From Pristionchus mayeri (taxonomy: Eukaryota; Nematoda; Chromadorea; Rhabditida; Neodiplogasteridae), in assembly GCA_036245805.1 (NCBI GenBank), contig BTRK01000006.1:12308365-12372364 (forward strand): 64,000 bases of DNA. Reading direction: 5' to 3'. The position numbers were made by a program, and so were the translations under genes. The notes beneath the pieces were generated by a model, which saw only the letters and a program-made list of their open reading frames with translations, had not been told where the DNA came from and did not search any database. Of the stretch, positions 32,162 through 49,282 are shown one piece after another (the first letter of the stretch is position 1; every line of letters begins with the position of its first letter).

Positions 32162-37187
<5,026 letters not shown>

Positions 37188-37409
37188 CTACCGTACCCCT
37201 CATTACCGTAATCTTTTAACCCGTAATTTTGGTTTCCTTGTACTTCACCTGAATCAGCTATTGCCTTATTTGCCGTATCCTTTATTTGCATCTATCTACT
37301 GAATCGATCGGAAACCGGTAGCTAGCATTATGTGTACATAGATAATTTTCATATTTTGCCATGTCACATAATTTCATCTTTGATCTTTGATCTACCTCGA
37401 TCACTCGCG

Positions 37410-40400
37410 TTAATTCCGAGATTCGAATTTCGCGCTCGATTGTTCCCCCCATTATTTTCATAGATAACAATAAAGCAAATTGAGGAATGAACGAAGCTGA
37501 GAAGTCGCTGAGAGTGACGTCATCTAACAGGGTGCTGACTGCGAGAGGAGAGGAAGTTAGAGAGGTATGGTTGAAGGGGAGGGGAAAGGGTGCGAGAAAG
37601 GAAGAGTAAAATTATTCGTTTTTGGAAAAGAGGATGAAATGCATTGTGGTTTCCAACTTTCTGAATACTTGAGGTAACATTGAAACACTCAATTGCAGTG
37701 TAAGTAAAATATCTCGAATTTCGTCCCTCTCTTTTTTTTATTTCTTGCTTATCTGAGATCCTCTAGTACTACCAAACCCATAACAAAAATGAGTAAGCAG
37801 AGAAGAAAGTATTAATTTATTGCGAACAAAGGATTGGAAGAACTGCTTCATCACGTTTTCAGTTGCCTTGTATTTCTTATGAAACATGAATGGGCGAGTG
37901 CCACCAGAAACATTTCAAAATGATGATAAGACGATTCACCACTTCCAGTCAGTAATGATACAAATTGAGGAATGGCCGAGACTGGGAAGAAGCGGGGGTG
38001 ACGTCATCTCACATGTTGCTGAGGAGGGAAGAGAAGGTACGGAGTGAGAAAGTGGAGTACAATAGGAGGAAATGGTCGAGCAGTAGAGAAGATTTTTAAT
38101 TCACGGGGTTGGTGGACGTCAACGCTTTTTTCCGATTGTCTGACAACTTAAGATAGTTCTGAAACACAGATCAGCCGTGTAAGTGAAATATCTGGAAATT
38201 CTTTCTTTACGTGTGTCAATGTTCTTGCGCCATGAGAATCCATTTGTCTTCTAGTACTACCAATAGCGCAATAAACATAGTCATTAGGAAATGATATTCA
38301 TGTGGATTTTATTGAAGTTGGAGATAATACAATGACTGTGGCATCATGTTATCGGTCTATCTTGTATATCTGGTGAAACAATAATGGGCAAGTGCCACCA
38401 GTAACACTGTGTAGTGCGGTGAAGAAGAGAGACCATTTCCAATCATTAATGATACAAATTGAGGAATGGTCGAGTCTGAAAAGAGGTGGAGGGTGACGTC
38501 ATCTCACACGTTGCTGAGGAGGAGAGAGGAAGGAAGGTACAGTGCTAATACATCTGTACTCCTGCAGTCGTCTAGTTCTACAAAAAGCTCAATAAGCATA
38601 GGCATTAGGATATTCATGTCGATTTTATTGAAGTTGGAGATAATACAATGACTGTGGCATCATGTTATCGGTCTATCTTGTATATCTGGTGAAACAATAA
38701 TGGGCAAGTGCCACCAGTAACACTGTGTAGTGCGGTGAAGAAGAGAGACCATTTCCAGTCATTAATGATACAAATTGAGGAATGGTCGAGTCTGAAAAGA
38801 GGTGGAGGGTGACGTCATCTCACACGTTGCTGAGGAGGGGAGAGGAAGGAAGGTACAGTGCTAATACATCTGTACTCCTGCAGTCGTCTAGTTCTACAAA
38901 AAGCGCAATAAGCATAGGCATTAGGATATTCATGTCGATTTTATTGAAGTTTTTTTTAGAAAACTGATAGAGAAAAAACTGTGGAATCACGTCATCAGTG
39001 TATCTTGTATGTCTCGTGAAACAAAAATGGGCGAATGCCTCCAGAAACACTGTGCAGTGTGCAGTGTGCGGAAGAAGAAAGACCACTCCCAGTCAGAAAT
39101 TATGTGAATTGAGGAATGGCCGAGGCTGAAACGCAGTGAGTGACGTCATCTCACACGATGTTGAGAAGGGGAGAGGAAGGTACGTAGTGGGAAAGTGGAG
39201 TACAATATGAGTGAATGGGCGAGCAGTAGAGAAAATTTTTTTAATTCACGCGATTGGCAGACAACAACCCTTCTTTCCGATTGTCTGACAGCTTAAGATA
39301 CTGCTGAAACACAGATCAACCTCGTTAGTAAAATTCTTGAATTTCTTTAATTGCGTCTCTCAAAGTTCTTGCGCAATTATGTCCTATAGTCATCGAGTAC
39401 TATCAAAAACACGATGCTAATAGGCATTACGAGAGGAGATTCTGAATTTTATGATGATTTTCAGAGACAAGGGGACTGCAGCATGACTATATCAGTGTAT
39501 CTTGTATATGTTGTGAAACATGAATCGGCGAGTGCCTACAGAAACACTGTGCAGTGTGTGGAAGAAGAAAGGTCACTCCCAGTCAGAAATTATGTGAATT
39601 GAGGAATGGCCGAGGCTGAGACGCAGCGCGTAACGTCATCTCACACGTTGCTGTCGAGAGGAGAGAAAGGTACGGGGTGAGAAAGTGGGATGCGATATGG
39701 GGGAATGATACAGTAGTAGAAGATTTTTTTATTGTGCACATGGTAGCCCATCAAGAACGCATTGTTCCGTTTTTTTATAAATTAAGATACTACTGAAACG
39801 CATATCGGCCATGTGAAAAAAATCTGGAGTGTCTTTAATTACCTCTCTTGAAAGTCGTGTGTAATTATATTCCTCTAGCCCTCTAGTACTAACGCGCAAG
39901 CATAGGCATTAGGAGAGGTGATTGTGAATTTTATTGTTTTTTTTATAGAGACAAAAGAGTATCTTGTATATCTTGTGAAACATGAATGGGCGAGTGCCAT
40001 CAGAAATACTTTGTTAGTCAATGATAATAATCATCGTCCTTTGTCCTTTGTCTCTTGAGTGTCTGGCATAGATTCTCCGAAATCTCATTCATTATTCACA
40101 TCTTATCATAATTATCGACATTCTTCTGCTTCTCACAAACTGATCTCCTTCCGTCGTTCCGATCGTTCTTCCCTCTCGTTCTTTGTTCTGTTGATTGACC
40201 CTATTCAATCTATCTCTAAATACTGTAAACTGCCGATTGCCATATTTTGTGCCGTCGCGTTGCGCTTTAATTTTCGTGGATCTAGCATTCATTCCGCGAT
40301 TCGAATTTCGCGCGCGATTGTTTCCTCCTATTTTCGAAATATTTAATTGTGACAATTGAGGAATGGCCGAGGCAGAGACGCCGAGAGTGGCGTCCTTCCA

Positions 40401-40470
40401 CACTTTGCTGTCGAGAGGAGAGGAAGTGAAGGAGGTACGGTGGGGGATAGATGCGTAGGGTCGAGTAGTT
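37410..40470 (+). repeat. array of seven first-exon modules of the FERRY3 homolog
   Basis: Seven diverged direct copies each contain ATTGAGGAATG, a coding-like stretch with GTGACGTCATCTCACACG, and a donor of the form GGTACGG. Start codons are at 37487 (A), 37972 (B), 38466 (C), 38782 (D), 39116 (E), 39606 (F) and 40363 (G). Spacing is about 316-757 bp; C and D are nearly identical. A and G share a different upstream sequence (GATTCGAATTTCGCG) from B-F, which have TGAAACA and an upstream CCAG. B and E have early stops. Donor phases differ: A and G phase 0, C and D phase 2, F phase 1. Only F fits the canonical exon 2 acceptor. Confidence 0.85.
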
Positions 40471-43400
40471 AATTTGTGGAGATGGTATGACGCTGTGATA
40501 TTAGCATTACTGGTTGTTCAGAGCTATGAGACTATAGCGAACCACAGATCAGCCAGGTCATTGAAAATTTTTAGTTGACTATCGAACGGATACTTTTTTA
40601 TGCCAAAATGTTGTGGATACTGAACTATCGGTGTTTAAATCGTGAATGATATTGATCTTTGATCTTTTCCGGTTTCGTGCGAGATTCCGATTCCTCTCCC
40701 CGCTCACTCTGATACGGAAGAGTACACTGCACACATCGTCGCCACTCAGAATGTACACCCAATGTACCACGAAGGTCAGCGAGATTGATCAGAGATCCAA
40801 TTGATATTTTAATGCTAATATAAATTTTTTTTATCAACTTAATATTGGAACGAAAAATGAGCTTGTGACGGAAGTAATCATGAAAATTGTACTAGGGGTT
40901 GAAAAAAATTTGTAAGATTTGTGTTTCATGATCTGGCCATTAGATGGACGGGTGCCGTTGCACTAATGATCCCTTGATCTGCGTTGTCAATATGATAAAT
41001 GTCACACTCTTCTAAATTCCAGAGTTGTCATCAGTCCTGGATTCGTTCATTCGTCGTGAGGAAGAGGAGAGAGAAGAGGAAAGGGACGATGAAGTGATTG
41101 AAGAGGCATTGAGAGAGGGAAGGAGTGTCGAGGTGCAGAGATGGAGTGAAGCACTCGAGAAGGTCAGGAAGATTTTTTTTCGATGAAACTGGATGCCAAG
41201 TCCATATTGTGAACGTCATTTTATCTATCCTTATGGACCATTTGTGAAGCATAAATTGTGTAGCATATCATTTGATTGACAGGAAAATGTTGATATTTTT
41301 TACCTCATGGTCAAAGACTCTAATGTGTGAGGTGCTGTTGACTTGTATGTAGAGCACTTGTGAATTCACGAATCATCGGGAAGGAATGGCAGTGTAGGCA
41401 CTCTCATAATAGATGAAAAATGGCAGAGAGTTATGGTAGTTGGTGTAACGTGGCGTGTACTCAGAATACGGTAACTTTGATATTTCCCTCATTTCAGCAC
41501 TCGCTGGACTCGCTCGAGGAGGCAGTGCGACTGGCGGAGACATTCGGACAGGTGAGCAGGCATTTATTTTTAATAGAATGAGAGGCCTGTTACGACTGAC
41601 TAGCTGCTGTGATGTGTAGGTATGATCACCTGTAGAAACGGGAAACTCATTGGTAAATTGAACTATTTTGGAATGCATCGTCGTTCTATTTTAAAGTATT
41701 TTTAAAGCATTCTCGAGCAGTTATTGTTTCCACTGCTATTGAATTAAATACACGCACCTACCCCCTGTGGAACAAATCATCCTGCTACCCAAATCAATTT
41801 TCTGAGGGAAATATCCAACTCGAATTAGGGTGATTTTGAAAAACTTCACTACTCGGTATTATCCCCGCTGCTATTGAAAGAACTAAATACACCAGCTGTG
41901 GCACCAATCATCCTACTTCCTAATTCGAATTTCTCATGGATATAATATTCTAATTAAGGTGATGCGTGAGTGCGATTCAGTGAGAATGGAAGCAGCGATG
42001 AGGAGAGAGGCCGAGATGGCCAATGAGGTGGGCGAGTGTTAATTAGGTGTTAATTAATTAATACCTAATCATTTATGCGCTGAAAACCCGCTAATCAAAC
42101 ATTATCTTGTTGTTGTTTTTATCGCGCCATGCACGGGAACAAACCTATTACAAGAAAAGTGTGAAGCACCGATTTGTGACCTGAACATATTTGTAAACAA
42201 TTAGGATATTTACATTTGTGCATTTGTGTTTCATATGGTGAGTAAAGGAAGAGTATCTACCATGTATTAAGTTTTGCTCGTGCTTTTCGGAACGAAAAAT
42301 GATAAATTAATTAATCCTGAAAATCTATGATATCCCTATTCTCTGTTCTTCTCAGGTGACCCGTCTGCTCTCCCTTCGAGATGCAGAGTTGGGAGGAGTG
42401 AGAAAGAGAGCGGAGGAACTAATGGAGAAGAAGAATATGGGAGAGGAGGAATTGAAGGAGTTGAGCAGATTTAACGAGGAAATGAGGGTCAGTTCATTTA
42501 CTTTTGTTCACGCACTCACTTCATTACTATTGAATCCGTGAGATTTTTACGGCTAAGTGCAATTAGTGCAACACCGATCGCACAAGGAACAATTTCCTGG
42601 ATTTATTGGAATCGTAGATACGATGTGCGCAATCAAAAGTATCTATTTAAAATGTGTGCGGTTAATCGCGTAAGCTAGGGCGCGGGGATTTTAATCGCCC
42701 GGAAGGCATAGTGAGTAGGCAATCCGATTATTCCTCCCGATCCGCGGGTAAGAAGTGAGCATACACGAATGATTATTCACGCTAGTTAGCGGGGGAAAAA
42801 TCAAAAGAACACATTGACAAGAGGTGACAAGAGGGCATTTCTCATGTTTGCTTGGATAGCCCGGCGCTTTTTCGTGTGCTCGGATGTTTTATCCCCTGAT
42901 CTGTGCTCGTGGAATGAGGAATGTGACAAGAAGTACTTCCGACTTGAGCCAACATTGAAGGAGTATTTGATATTTTTTGTTGGTTTTGTTCAATCCTGTG
43001 TAAGCGAGAAGGAGTTGCAAATGGGAACAATATCTTTCTTTGAAACAGCTAACCGTGTAGGAGCGCGTCCAGATTTGGAACTGTATTACCGATGTTTTGC
43101 TGTAGATATCCGAGATCCGAGCAAACAAAGAGTCCTATCCATAGACATCGTTTGAAACGAAGTATCAGGCAATCTTTCCCATTCCCCCGTGGTGTCAAAT
43201 GAGAGGCTGTTTGGTGTGGGGACGAGGAAGTAAGAAGAGATGAGGGGAATCAGAAACAGAGGGGCAACACTAGAGAAAAAGACACGAGAGGTGATGAGAT
43301 TCTGTGTGAGAAACAAGGAAGAAAGAAATCACTGGGACTATTTAATGAATTTGTAATGTATTCGATTCTAGAGATGCATTGAAGAGTGAAAATTCACTAG

Positions 43401-46400
43401 AAAAAAGATTCAGAACTATTGTAATGAATAATTTGCAGTACATCCAGGAGTCTTATGTGGAGGAGCTGAGGATGCTCGGAGTGAGACAAAGGAGCGAATT
43501 CAAGGAGATGGTGAGGGATTTCTCACATTCTTTGTAAATGATAATTGTTTGAATTTTGCAAAATAGAAGGGAGAAAAATTGGCATTTTCTGTCCGAACAT
43601 ACTCATAAGCATGCTTTGCGAGCCCAATTTCGCGGGTTCACAAAATTCGTATTTTACAGATTCGGCGCCTGACCAAAGATCCGACTTACGTGCCACAAGT
43701 AATGGGAACTGGAAGGGATGAGGATAGTCAGAGGTCAATATTTTCGAAATTAGAATTTTAAAAAACTGAGTTTATTACACGTGAGTGTCTTATTTGTACA
43801 ACAAAGTAGCGTTCGAGAAAGATTCGGGGGTTCGTTTGTACCAGTAAGGAATGGGGAAAGACGGACTATTGCATAGTCTGGGGGTGCAGCAAAGGGGGCG
43901 TGGCTTATTTGCCGAAGACGGGAGCTGCAGCATGCACGACCGGTGCAGCAGCAACGGCACCAGGGTAGGCGAGCACGGAGGGGTACGGACGGTAGTACTG
44001 GTAGAAGGAGTTGGCGGTGAGCTGGAAAGGGTGATTATGGTTAGCAAGGGTGGTTCATGTTGCAACTAGGTGCCATATCCTTGTAGAAGTTACGAAATTG
44101 ATAGTTGCTCGATTATGTTGCCAACAAAAATAAAAATAAATTGATGATACAGATTTCGGTAGCACTCACCACTCTGGGTCCTCCGTAGAAGTATTGACCG
44201 ACTTGGGCATCGCACACGGCGAACAGAGCAATGGCGAGAATGCACAGACGGATACTGAAGGGTAATCGATAATCTGGGATACGGCAGTCTGAGGATACTG
44301 TAGCATGCACATGATATAAAACATTGTTGTTTAAAAATACACTAGGTGCTAGGATACCGTATCAATAGATGGAACTCTTTACTCACATCTTGGCAATCAT
44401 TGCTGGAGGAGGTTGCTGGGGGAAGGGACGACTGGTGATGAGAGGGGGAGGAGGGAGATTATATACGCTGAGAGCCCCTCTCAACTGCTCGTAGATCTAA
44501 TACTTTTGTCTCTGTTGGCCTTCTCGTTTTTGTGTTAGGAGACACCGCACGAGCATGCGAGAGTTTTTCACGCGTGGCCTGACTGTCTGCCGTCTCTTCT
44601 ATGTCCCACACTCTCTCGCCTCCCTCTGCGCCCTCCCGGCGGTTGTTCTCGCCCTCCCCGTGTACTGAGACTGTGCAAACTGCGTGATTCCGATGCGACA
44701 CTCTCTCAAATTTGCACAGTCTCTCGCTCTGTTTGAGTGACGAGGGAGCATGCGGATTGGAGAGAGTACGACGAGTGATCTCAATTGCAACCCCCTCGGG
44801 GACTATCCCTTGTGTTATTTGACCTGGGTGTCAAGTGCAATGATTACCGGAGGATCGGCGTTTCAACGAGTGTCAAACTACTTCTTGTCAAATACGAGCG
44901 ATGGACTGACTCCCGAGAGATCTCTCTGTTCTCTCGGCAAGGCCAATCGGAGAGTTAGGAGGGAAGAGGGAGAATTCTTGAATGAAATAGGAGCAAATAG
45001 CTGTCGAGGTTGCGTATCCAATTACAGGGTGAAGAGGGTAACTGGATGTTTGGAAGTGGTTCTTGGGAGAACAGGTAGGTTGGGTCAGTGGTATTTTTGG
45101 ATGCGGGAATGGCGTGTAAGTTAGAATGTGATTCAGCTTAGCTTACGATGAGATCGTGCAACCAGAAAGTGATGGTTGATCTCGGATCATAATTCCCCCT
45201 TTTTCATCTTTCTTGCTCGGCATCCTAGAACGTGGAAGTAGTGATGAGCCATACAGCGTTTGTCGGCTTTAATTGGTGAATAGCGTTACGATTCCTGCGT
45301 TTTTTCCACGTATTGGTGCAGCTAGGATGTGTTTGAGCTTGTTTGGAGTAGTCGAGAAGGATTTGTGGATTGTTTTGTTTGAGAATTTTCGCGATCGAAA
45401 TTGATGATTCCGTGATCGGAGATACTGTTGTATGGTGGATGCAACCAGGAATCAATTGGTGCCGTGATCGGATTGAAATATAATGAAAAATAGCCCTGCG
45501 CATGGAATAGGAAATAAACAACATCTCATATGAGAACCTCCAAATTTTGAGCGGCATCGTGGAAATTGAAGAGCGGGGAAAGGATTTTTTAGAAAATGTA
45601 TGCAAAAATAATTTAATATTTTGTTTTCCAGCCTGAGCGGGAACAGCGGCAGTCATCCTCGGAAGCTCGAGGAAAGCTTCACGATCTACCTTGGTGAGAT
45701 GCGGTTACACGATTCCATCTAGTCGTAGCATTCTGGCATTCGATAATAGTTTGTGTACACCGCCTGATTACATTGTTTACAATCAGTTGAAACTATTTTT
45801 AAAATATTTTCCCAAGTATTGAATTTCGGTTTCACAACACTGTGAAGATGTTAGGATGTGTTACCGTCCCAATCCTTCCTCTGACTTCATTCTGAAAAAA
45901 TATAATCAATTCTTATGTACAGCGCTCTGATCTGGCCATCTCATTTGATTTGTGGCTAGTAGTATATATTTGATCTATGATCGTTTATCCTCCTTCTCTC
46001 TCGCAGGTGCTCAGCTGAAGACGATGCACAACGCGCGAATCGTAGTGGGCAGTGAACTGGGAGAGGAGAGGGACTGGAATGCGCCCCATGTGAGACTGCA
46101 GGTGAGACTTGGTCTTTGATCTTTCGTTGTATGCGCCGGAATACGATAGCTTCAACAAGCATCTTTTAAAAAATCGTAAGCTTCACCTTGTGCTTCGCTA
46201 TTTCTGATCCAGTTTCTCAAAAAAGAGTGTTTCCAGTTAGGCTCGAGTTTCGCAATGAGATTGTTATGCTGCGATTGCACGTGCGCTTCGATTAGTCCTG
46301 CTCCGAGGTGCCGAAAATAAAATTTATAATGAATTATGAGAATTACAGGCCTCTATGAGTCTGTACCGTCGTGAGTTGACTGCGACCGTTCTGCTGGTGG

Positions 46401-49282
46401 GCAGAGACCCCAAGTGGCACCTGCAGAGAAGGAGTGGTGAGAATTAAGCGAATTATGTTGTCATAATTAGTCATAATAATTGTGTACACTGTGATTGCGG
46501 CACTTCCGCAGTATGCCGTACCAGAATGAGAGGGGTAGGAGGAGGAGGAGGAATGACAGGATAGGGTAGGTGATGGTCGAAAATTATTTACTAAAATCAC
46601 TAACTAACCGTAACGCATGGTGCTCACCAGCTATACCGTCATAGCCTATCCTGTTATACCTCCTCCTCATTCCTACCCCTCTCGTTCTGGTACGACATAC
46701 TGCAGAAGTGCCGTGATTGCTATCTATCGAGGTTGCTGATTTTCTCCGGTTCTCAACTGTTTGTGAAACAAGATTTCCCACCATCTTAAGCACAACTATT
46801 TTTTCCGTTGATTTAAACATGTACAATTACATTTAAAACGTTAGTTAATCGAGATAAAAATAATGATTTCAGACTTTGCACGTCTCTGCGAGCGATCGAC
46901 CGAACTGCACTTCGCGCCTCTCGAGCAGCAATTGCGGGAGGTCGCAGAGGCAGCCAAGAGAGCCAACGGAAGCAGGAAGGACGGGTGGGTCATGCATGGG
47001 CAGCGATTGCTGCTGATCTTCTAAATCCGGGAGGGTGCCAACTAGTTAAGCCATAAAAGCGGCAGGGTATACAGAGCCTGGTACCCCAAAGTATAATGGG
47101 CACTATCCGAAAACCGGGAGGGTTTTGCTGCTAGCAGCAATGCTGCCGACGTTCATTCATTCATTCATTTATTCCGTTCAGTGTTAGCCACGACCCACGT
47201 TTGGGCTGGGTCGTGGCTAACACTGAGTCGAATGAAAACTACTGATTACTTTATATCATAAAACGACAGGACGCAATAGGGGGGCCTGTGTTCTGCTTTC
47301 TTGCATTTCGGCCACTATATTGTTCTCCCCTATTCTCTATCGCTGCTGTCCACAGTAGAGAAAGAAGTGAATATAATGGTTACTTTCATTATATTGTTTC
47401 CCTATTTCAGTGGATATCAGTCGGATGACACTTTCTCCACGGGCGATGTCTACGTGACGAGGCACTCGAATCTTGGCAATGTTCATGTCAGTTTTGTGCT
47501 TCTCATTTGAAAAGGTCTGTTACTGTGCAATAACTAGATTTTGATTGGTTTCACAAGTTGTAACTTTTTACCTTCTTTAGGAACCGATTCGTAAAATTTT
47601 TAAGCCTCGTGCTTGTGTGTTTCGACAGCTGGGTATAACTGATGGGAGTTGTGCACCAACGATAGTATTCCGGTTTGCTTCGAAAAATAATATCGAATAG
47701 CCGTTGCAGACAGGGTCGCTCCTGTGCGATAGAGTATGCAAAATAGACAGTGAAAATATCGATCGATTCCAGATCGTGTACCATCTGGTGGTCGACGAGG
47801 CAGATCAGTACAAGGACATCAACAGTCGGTGAGTGCGTGTATTCTGAGATCACAAATTATTTTCCCCACCTCTTCAAGAGTCGTCCTGGGAAGCGCGTAA
47901 CCTTGAAATAAGATTAACCCGTTGATCTGAATGAATAGAAAACCGTTAAATTCTGCTGATATTTTCCTGCCGAATGAATGCTACGAGAAATATATTTCTT
48001 CGCTCTGATCTCTTGGAAGCAATAGCTTCCTTGTATCTACGCTCTCCATATAATAATTCAAATATGCCTGAACCTATTTCCATCCGTAGGTACAATTACG
48101 AACTCTCAAGGACAGCAATCAAAAAATGAAATCGCTTTTGAATGTGCGTCACGGGTTGGCGATATTTCAACAAAGGTAGTAATGCGCTTCAGTTGTATAC
48201 CAAGTACAATCGATGCCTTCTTCAGTCGATGTACTTGACCCGCGATACAATTCTAATTCAAATCAGTGCTTGGATGTGAAATGCTAGTTTCACCGATACA
48301 AGCGAGATCTTTGTCACTGGAGTTTCTTTTATAGCGCACATAAAATTTTTTAACAATATATCTGCATAATACGTTTGAATATTAGGAAAATAAGATGAGA
48401 CGCAAAATCGGTTTTTTTTCTCTCTAAAACCGTAATATTTATTCTATTTAGTCACCCGTACCTCTCTGGTGTCCGCAACATCATCCGCCTCGCTTCTCGC
48501 TTCGGAGTGACTACTCTCTCCCTACCAATGCTATTCACTGACGCCGTGCACGAGGTGAGAAGAGGCGAACTTTTTGTTTCATGCAATTGGTTTATTGCTC
48601 ATGATTCCTGGTGCGTCAATGATATCTACTTGATCTTGGGAATAATAACATTAACTACGCTTGACGGTTAATGGCCTGTTGAAGTCGAGCTGAACATACT
48701 TTGTGTGTGATGGTTGCTTTGACTCAAATGGCTAGATCAGAAAATGTTAATTTGATCTCCGTAAATTGCAGTCGATGTCAGTGCAGTGGAGTGTGCGTCG
48801 TGCCGAGCTCGTGTTCAAGTGCGTCAAGGGATATCTCATGGAGGTATGCTGTAGACTCTAGATATACTGTAGTGTAGAGGGTGCTCTCTACAGTGTAGAG
48901 GACAATTATTGATCCACGATGATTATAATTTCTTCGCTAATGAGTCAGGAAATCTCTGGGAAAGTCACCCGTAAACTTTATGTTTCAACAAGACCTCATA
49001 TGTTTTAAAATCGAGTGGTGATCAATGAGTTCGCTTTACCCGTGAGTATAGAAAATACCATATTATATGCTCCTGAGACTCTTTCTCTCTAACCGCTTCC
49101 CTGTTTTCCAGATCTGTTCAACGGGTTGGTCGTCAGTCTCTCTCGGCGGTGCCTCTCTCTCGCGCGCCCCTCACTACAACATCAACTTCGTCCTCCCACG
49201 CGATATTTCGATCGATATTTACTCCAATATCGTATCCCTCTTCCCCACCATCTTCCATCTTGTGCCCTCGGTTACGGCGTAG
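39606..49282 (+). CDS. FERRY3: FERRY3 (C12orf4) homolog
   Basis: Sixteen exons give 479 aa: 39606-39669, 41023-41162, 41498-41551, 41959-42027, 42356-42487, 43439-43510, 43660-43733, 45632-45693, 46007-46101, 46349-46436, 46873-46984, 47411-47486, 47773-47828, 48452-48554, 48772-48843 and 49112-49282. The N-terminal half is a charged coiled-coil region. The C-terminal half has the family signatures SFTIYLGAQLK, YVTRHSNLGNVH (335-346), YHLVVDE and RRAELVFKCVKG (408-419). FERRY complex proteins link early endosomes to mRNA (family knowledge). Exon 1 is uncertain: module F fits phase 1 with TTCCAG at 41022; module G (40363-40434) would need the weaker CCAGAG at 41024. A tiny ATG-TGA uORF precedes F. 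Intron 7 hosts another gene. Confidence 0.87.
43771..43776 (-). terminator. polyadenylation signal of the nested gene
   Basis: AATAAA on the minus strand lies about 130 nt after the stop of the nested gene at 43905 and before FERRY3 exon 7 is reached. Confidence 0.7.
43905..44400 (-). CDS. small secreted protein nested in FERRY3 intron 7
   Basis: Three exons (44400-44387, 44254-44170, 44021-43905) encode 71 aa. A positively charged start and hydrophobic core (LCILAIALFAVC) ending before AQ make a clear signal peptide. The mature part is about 50 residues, Tyr/Pro/Ala-rich (GQYFYGG, QYYRPYPSVLAYP, AAAPVVHAAAPVFGK). It lacks Cys and has no recognisable domain. It resembles small secreted Tyr/Gly/Ala-rich peptides of nematode epidermis in style only. 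It lies wholly inside intron 7 of the opposite-strand FERRY3 gene, with its own TATA box and AATAAA, so it should be independently regulated. Confidence 0.85.
44458..44465 (-). promoter_or_regulatory. TATA box of the nested gene
   Basis: TATATAAT on the minus strand lies 58 bp upstream of the nested gene's ATG. Further upstream, at about 44600-44770, CCACACTCTCTCGCC and GAGGGAGCATGCGGATTGGA GAGA-type motifs occur. Confidence 0.6.
46489..46720. repeat. foldback repeat in FERRY3 intron 10
   Basis: An arm of about 78 bp containing GTACCAGAATGAGAGGGGTA is mirrored at about 46665-46690, with a 75-bp loop. The arms differ by a few substitutions and small indels in the AGG-rich part. Confidence 0.85.
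46985..47226. repeat. possible retroposon remnant with ATTC tail and hairpin
   Basis: In FERRY3 intron 11, GC-balanced sequence with two CCGGGAGGGT blocks ends in a short (ATTC)n tract at about 47153-47170. It is followed by a hairpin (47178-47226) with 20-bp perfect arms starting TCAGTGTTAGCCACGACCCA. The tail resembles the simple-repeat ends of some LINE/SINE copies; no coding sequence remains. Confidence 0.4.

What the first reader, a model, noticed from the sequence alone, without database searches (positions are those of the whole stretch)
37410..40470. Seven-copy array of a gene's first exon, with phases that differ between copies
Seven diverged modules, each with ATTGAGGAATG, a coding-like stretch of about 60-80 nt and a GGTACGG donor, stand in a row upstream of the FERRY3 homolog. 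Only module F (39606-39669) has phase 1 and so joins the canonical TTCCAG acceptor at 41022 in frame. Modules A and G are open but phase 0, usable only with an acceptor two bases further on. B and E carry early stops; C and D are phase 2. A and G also share a distinct upstream sequence. This could be an alternative-promoter/first-exon array or a decaying segmental amplification that moved the functional start.
Basis: partly seen in the sequence, partly recalled or inferred. Interest (0 to 1): 0.85.

Follow-up and report, generated by a model that had tools for sequence, protein, structure and literature searches.

The report
Decaying tandem copies of a first exon
In the nematode Pristionchus mayeri the first exon of a conserved gene (FERRY3) was copied in tandem several times; the copy nearest the gene matches the first exon of related worms, and the others look like mostly broken leftovers.

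Summary
The array is real. Seven copies of exon 1 plus the start of intron 1 of FERRY3 (Fy-3 family) lie between an enoyl-CoA hydratase gene and FERRY3; genome searches found no copy elsewhere. The genome is Pristionchus mayeri RS5460 by size and contig length. A 103-nt exon at 40672-40774 lies between the array and the acceptor at 41022. It opens in phase 0, so modules A and G, not F, fit it. G encodes the first exon seen in P. pacificus and P. fissidentatus and keeps a Phe aligned in 33 of 33 chosen FERRY3 sequences. A-F carry TCT (Ser) there; B and E have stops, and B-F are out of phase with exon 2. I read this as a tandem amplification of several ages (C and D share 300 nt at 99%), with G the working start and A-F mostly decayed. 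One oddity remains: the exon-2 acceptor reads TTTTCCG, not TTTTCAG. Either a weak in-frame acceptor 12 nt on is used, or exon 2 is skipped, and then F alone is in frame with a canonical acceptor. RNA data can decide.

The parts
32162..37187 (+). enoyl-CoA hydratase-like gene, 8 exons, immediately upstream
   Evidence: complete reading with 7 of 7 acceptors AG; Pfam ECH_1 E 2.3e-46
37385..37459 (+). promoter-side block of module A, shared with 40265-40335
   Evidence: local alignment score 68, 0 of 300 shuffles reach it
37478..37564 (+). module A: motif + 78-nt open reading, phase 0, donor GTATGG; in frame with exon 2
37963..38036 (+). module B: phase 2, stop at codon 10
38457..38536 (+). module C: 71 nt, phase 2; acceptor-like site upstream reads CCAA
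38773..38852 (+). module D: 71 nt, phase 2; exon block 80/81 identical to C
39107..39179 (+). module E: phase 1, stop at codon 8
39597..39669 (+). module F: 64 nt open, phase 1; frameshifts into exon 2, in frame with exon 3 only
40265..40335 (+). promoter-side block of module G, shared with module A
40354..40434 (+). module G: likely true exon 1 of FERRY3 (MAEAETPRVASFHTLLSRGEEVKE), phase 0
   Evidence: identical from codon 5 on to the start of P. mayeri model P0001 and alignable to exon 1 of P0002 and P0004; aligned Phe in 33 of 33 chosen rows
40665..40671 (+). expected acceptor of exon 2, TTTTCCG in place of TTTTCAG (no AG)
   Evidence: present in P0001-P0004
40682..40683 (+). next AG, in frame (GTGCGAG|ATT at 40684), loses VSCE; weak acceptor score
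41498..49282 (+). exons 4-17 of FERRY3 to the stop codon
   Evidence: one continuous reading; Pfam Fy-3 E 8.5e-99 for the whole protein

Best explanation
Exon 1 of FERRY3 with its promoter was duplicated, giving A and G. The A-type copy was then amplified in place with the first part of intron 1, giving B-F; C and D came apart most recently. G, next to exon 2, stays the coding start and splices in phase 0 to exon 2. A-F are paralogous copies that lost the aligned Phe; changes at the exon end put B-F out of phase with exon 2, and B and E also have stops. They are now mostly inert upstream exons. A alone could still give a full-length protein from its own promoter block. Shown: repeat structure, absence of other copies in the searches made, exon 2, phases, match of G to exon 1 of relatives. 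Inferred: order of duplications, and that G is the start used in the worm. Unsettled: which acceptor exon 2 uses.
For: Exon 2 is in the window and in the models of all four Pristionchus species found. G + exon 2 + exon 3 onward reads through to the stop (516 aa, or 512 with the weak acceptor), and A likewise (518/514); F stops after 34 or 30 codons. G reads ETPRVASFHTLLSRGEEVKE, as P0001; P. pacificus has VQRVAEFRTLLSRGEEVKE at the aligned place. Phe at the aligned column in 33 of 33 chosen rows; in the DNA alignment A-F have TCT where G has TTC. The GEEV[KR]E end is kept in G and A; B, E and F lack 8 nt there and C and D differ too. C and D share 300 nt at 99%, against 64-71% for the usable intron comparisons with A or G. 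All genome hits lie in one 3.2-kb place.
Against: The exon-2 acceptor in this assembly lacks AG, and the next AG scores -4.9 against 0.2 to 10.2 for the 15 other acceptors left out one at a time. Upstream of G's ATG the only AG after 40284 is the one inside the motif itself (read), while B, D, E and F have acceptor-like sites. E-F, F-G and E-G differ less at non-synonymous sites than their introns do (p 0.005, 0.002, 0.001, uncorrected), a hint that E and F were coding for a time. The F form without exon 2 matches Fy-3 almost as well (329.1 against 332.3 bits). P0001 comes from this same locus and is probably a projected model, so it is not independent evidence of splicing.
Confidence: 0.66

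Rival explanations
1. Start-site switch. The exon-2 acceptor is dead, exon 2 is skipped, and module F (phase 1), with its own acceptor-like site for a spliced leader, now starts FERRY3 by splicing to exon 3, giving a 479-aa protein without exon 2.
For: Of the four acceptors tried, F to exon 3 is the only pairing with a canonical CAG that gives a full reading. Exon 3 has the best acceptor score of 15 (10.2 left out), the exon-2 acceptor lacks AG, and F has an AG 23 nt upstream of its ATG scoring 7.1. Non-synonymous differences are low between F and E/G. Pfam Fy-3 still matches this form at 329.1 bits.
Against: Exon 2 is intact and not clearly faster evolving than the rest: 28/34 against 389/455 identical to P. 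pacificus, 24/34 against 363/455 to P. fissidentatus. F lacks the Phe found in 33 of 33 chosen rows. The protein would lose an N-terminal stretch alignable across animals.
Confidence: 0.1
2. A working alternative-first-exon array: A and G (full length) and perhaps F (short form) are used from separate promoters or leader-splice sites.
For: A and G are both open, both phase 0 and both have the shared promoter-side block. B, D, E and F have acceptor-like sites.
Against: 4 of 7 modules (B, C, D, E) give no full-length reading with any of the four acceptors tried. A has lost the TLLS core and the Phe. One protein search with exons 1-5 found no fragment. 0.8 to 5.3% of all AGs in the window score as high as these acceptor-like sites.
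Confidence: 0.15
3. The modules are kept as non-coding regulatory units (a TGACGTCA, CRE-like site) rather than as exons.
For: Perfect TGACGTCATC in 5 of 7 modules, A-E. Exon blocks are more alike than introns in most usable pairs.
Against: G, the copy that matches relatives, lacks the site and F has TAACGTCA. A run of 12 or more invariant columns arises in 4015 of 100000 column shuffles, so the conserved motif is not striking.
Confidence: 0.05
4. Assembly artefact (collapsed or invented copies).
For: C and D are nearly identical over 300 nt, a place where an assembler can slip.
Against: The assembly was made from PacBio HiFi reads with a 10-kb minimum length (PMC11544036, passages), about three times the array; the other module introns are 64-93% alike in usable comparisons.
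Confidence: 0.02

Closest known systems
Alternative first-exon clusters (vertebrate protocadherins, UGT1A; chelicerate Dscam 5' cassettes, PMC4835542: start of abstract seen; the rest recalled)
   Same: Tandem copies of 5' exons upstream of shared downstream exons
   Different: There, as recalled, most copies are intact, in one phase and expressed; here phases differ, two copies have stops and no expression is shown
Tandem exon duplication with decay (pseudo-exons), general knowledge
   Same: Local head-to-tail copies of an exon with flanking intron, of several ages, one kept functional
   Different: The first exon with its promoter is involved, and there are six extra copies
FERRY3/C12orf4 (Pfam PF10154 Fy-3)
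   Same: The gene itself is a plain member
   Different: Only the 5' end is unusual

Membership tests
FERRY3 (Pfam PF10154, Fy-3) | Match to the family profile over nearly its whole length | tested here: met
   E 8.5e-99, profile 2-496 of 498
Alternative-first-exon array | Each first exon is open and in phase with the common next exon | tested here: not met
   2 of 7 (A, G) are in phase with exon 2; 1 of 7 (F) gives a full reading from the canonical exon-3 acceptor
Alternative-first-exon array | Each first exon has its own promoter | tested here: inconclusive
   Only A and G were found to share a promoter-side block; promoter activity not testable
Alternative-first-exon array | Transcripts start in more than one copy | not testable with these tools
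   No RNA data held; one protein search with exons 1-5 found no fragment
Tandem exon duplication with decay | Head-to-tail copies including flanking intron, at one place | tested here: met
Tandem exon duplication with decay | One copy orthologous to the single exon of relatives, others degenerate | tested here: inconclusive
   G matches exon 1 of relatives and most other copies are broken, but relatives were seen as protein only, so that they have a single exon 1 is inferred

The most novel reading that the evidence does not exclude
Exon duplication rescued a gene from a splice-site loss. The acceptor of exon 2 died (TTTTCAG to TTTTCCG), and a duplicated first exon that had shifted phase (F) now joins exon 3 in frame, so the start of FERRY3 moved upstream and a conserved N-terminal segment was dropped in P. 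mayeri.
Probability: 0.09. Interest if true: 0.72.

Novelty: new member of a known kind. Interest (0 to 1): 0.36.

Why it matters
It is a clean, single-locus example of first-exon amplification with copies of several ages, phases and states of decay beside a conserved gene. The lost AG at exon 2 makes one question directly testable with ordinary RNA reads: does the worm use a poor acceptor, or a phase-shifted duplicate exon? It also shows how an automatic gene model can hide a splice-site defect.

Tried and rejected
Rejected: that the acceptor at 41022 belongs to exon 2 (it is exon 3). Rejected: that the stretch before modules B-F derives from intron 2 or from G's intron 1 (64 or more of 300 shuffles reach the score in each of 10 comparisons of five such stretches; against the upstream of A the lowest was 15 of 300). 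Its origin is unknown. G's intron 1 shares only a short block with those of B and E (scores 31 and 27, 1 of 300 shuffles each); A and F gave nothing (215 and 134 of 300). Rejected: an Rfam RNA at gathering score or a tRNA in the window (0 and 0). Rejected: a dispersed repeat or transposon (all hits local; the tool scores only its best candidates and skips very common words, so this is not proof). Rejected as striking: the invariant 12-base motif and the CRE-like site.

Weak points of my own tests. The Ka/Ks counts are tiny (4, 5 and 6 non-synonymous changes in the three low pairs). They cover 15 pairs among A and C-G; B was left out (frameshifted), and stop and gapped codons were dropped. The comparison with intron rates was made on 6 chosen pairs, uncorrected, and forced alignment of introns inflates their mismatch. 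Intron comparisons of G with A, C and D aligned only 1-8 bases and were not used. A neutral exon stays open in 51-76% of simulations, so F being open proves little. The acceptor matrix rests on 15 sites that I had placed at AG myself, so 'all AG' is partly by construction. The 33 FERRY3 rows were chosen by me from 120 listed for length and spread; P0003 (fused) and 5'-short models were left out, and in the 10-row alignment the same column is 90% or more, not invariant. The array control is small: 20 stretches of 10 kb at round coordinates, in which TRF found 4 arrays with units of 100 bp or more (one a 10-kb satellite) and none with units of 300 bp or more; TRF itself sees only the C-E part of our array, so diverged arrays may be missed.

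Led nowhere: literature searches for the locus or for first-exon arrays in nematodes (listings and abstract starts only, except passages of PMC11544036 and PMC7992802; no listed title concerns this array); solved structures for FERRY3 (0); structure prediction (switched off).

Full report
Where it is. The window lies in contig C6 (57,250,744 bases) of a 290,818,952-base genome. The best FERRY3 homolog, PMAYCL1PPCAC_27500 of Pristionchus mayeri, comes from a contig of the same length, and the published P. mayeri RS5460 assembly is 290.8 Mb, from PacBio HiFi reads and Hi-C (PMC11544036, passages). So this is that assembly, and that protein is the model of this very locus.

The array. Seven modules, each opening with AATTGAGGAATG, stand in one orientation from 37478 to 40434. 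Genome searches with module F, with the stretch before an ATG, with a module intron, and with A plus its upstream return only places inside C6:12345564-12348805 (6, 3, 2 and 5 matches, each query's own place included). The tool scores only its best candidates, so this is strong but not complete evidence of uniqueness. Each module carries intron sequence after its donor; the unit is 485-494 nt for A, B and E, and 316 and 334 nt for C and D, which lack a piece of intron. C and D are 80/81 identical in the exon block and share 300 nt at 99%. Pairs with A or G are 78-84% alike in the exon block and 64-71% in usable intron comparisons. The array therefore holds copies of quite different ages.

The missed exon. 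The P. mayeri, P. pacificus, P. entomophagus and P. fissidentatus models all have a further stretch, VSC-IPIPLP...HPM, between the exon-1 part and the ELS/ELL start of the next exon. It is encoded at 40672-40774, 103 nt, with a donor GAAG|GTCAGC in phase 1 that joins 41023 exactly. Its start is phase 0. In the P. entomophagus model two exons of an enoyl-CoA hydratase-like gene take the place of exon 1 and run straight into this exon, again at the V and in phase 0, which suggests the same neighbour order there.

Frames. With exon 2 in place, A and G give full readings (518 and 516 aa); F stops after 34 codons, C and D after 82, B after 9 and E after 7. With exon 2 skipped, only F reads through from the CAG ending at 41022 (479 aa); A and G would need the poor GAG two bases on.

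G matches exon 1 of relatives. From its fifth codon G reads as P0001 does, and it aligns with P. pacificus VQRVAEFRTLLSRGEEVKE. A Phe in this exon is aligned in 33 of 33 rows from nematodes to mammals, P0001 included (rows chosen from the 120 listed). A-F have TCT (Ser) at that place in the DNA alignment. G and A keep the GEEV(K/R)E end; B, E and F lack 8 nt there, and C and D differ there in another way. The simplest order is: G-like ancestor, duplication to A and G with the promoter block, change to the ACGTCATCT form, loss at the exon end, then B-F. This order is inferred.

The splice-site puzzle. The 15 other FERRY3 acceptors and the 7 of the neighbouring gene end in AG, as I placed them. 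The exon-2 acceptor reads TTTTCCG. The nearest upstream AG is at 40573; the next downstream, 40682-40683, is in frame and costs VSCE, but scores -4.9 on a small matrix from this gene. The length of this segment varies between animals (C. auriculariae is 7 residues shorter), so losing four residues may be tolerable. Exon 2 shows no clear acceleration: 28/34 identical to P. pacificus against 389/455 for the rest, and 24/34 against 363/455 for P. fissidentatus. A recent loss, a strain mutation or a sequence error all remain possible. P0001 does not settle it. Its name points to the PPCAC package, which maps both P. pacificus proteins and transcript frames with exonerate (PMC7992802, passages). 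Its start inside exon 1, and a KDG-YQ join for which I see no GT-AG path in the sequence, suggest a projected protein; were it built on a transcript, it would support G joined to exon 2.

Are A-F working? For: B, D, E and F have acceptor-like AGs 23 nt before the ATG, scores 7.3, 9.2, 5.2 and 7.1, as one might expect of leader-splice sites; C has lost the AG and A scores 2.0. G was not scored; the only AG between 40284 and its ATG is in the motif (read). But 0.8 to 5.3% of all 3808 AGs on this strand score as high as those four. Non-synonymous differences in E-F, F-G and E-G are below their intron rates (p 0.005, 0.002, 0.001), but not in A-F, D-F and C-F (p 0.13, 0.46, 0.41). The F form loses only 3 bits against Fy-3. 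Against: stops in B and E, phase 2 in B, C and D, loss of the Phe in all. I take the signal as a trace of past coding use at most.

Verdict. A real, local, multi-age amplification of a first exon with G as the likely working start.

Noticed in passing
34798-36314: Long inverted repeat in the last-but-one intron of the enoyl-CoA hydratase gene: arms of 445, 141 and 40 nt, 95-98% complementary; looks like a foldback mobile element.
   Followed up: partly
46498-46713: Short inverted repeat (43-nt arms, 93% complementary, 130 nt apart) in a FERRY3 intron.
   Followed up: no
43880-44410: Apparent small reading on the minus strand nested in a FERRY3 intron, seen by eye only.
   Followed up: no
P0003 (P. 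entomophagus protein): Gene model joins enoyl-CoA hydratase-like N-terminal sequence to FERRY3 exon 2; may be a read-through transcript or a model error.
   Followed up: partly
L023:1-10000: A control stretch (C2:3000001-3010000) is filled by a satellite of about 170 bp.
   Followed up: no
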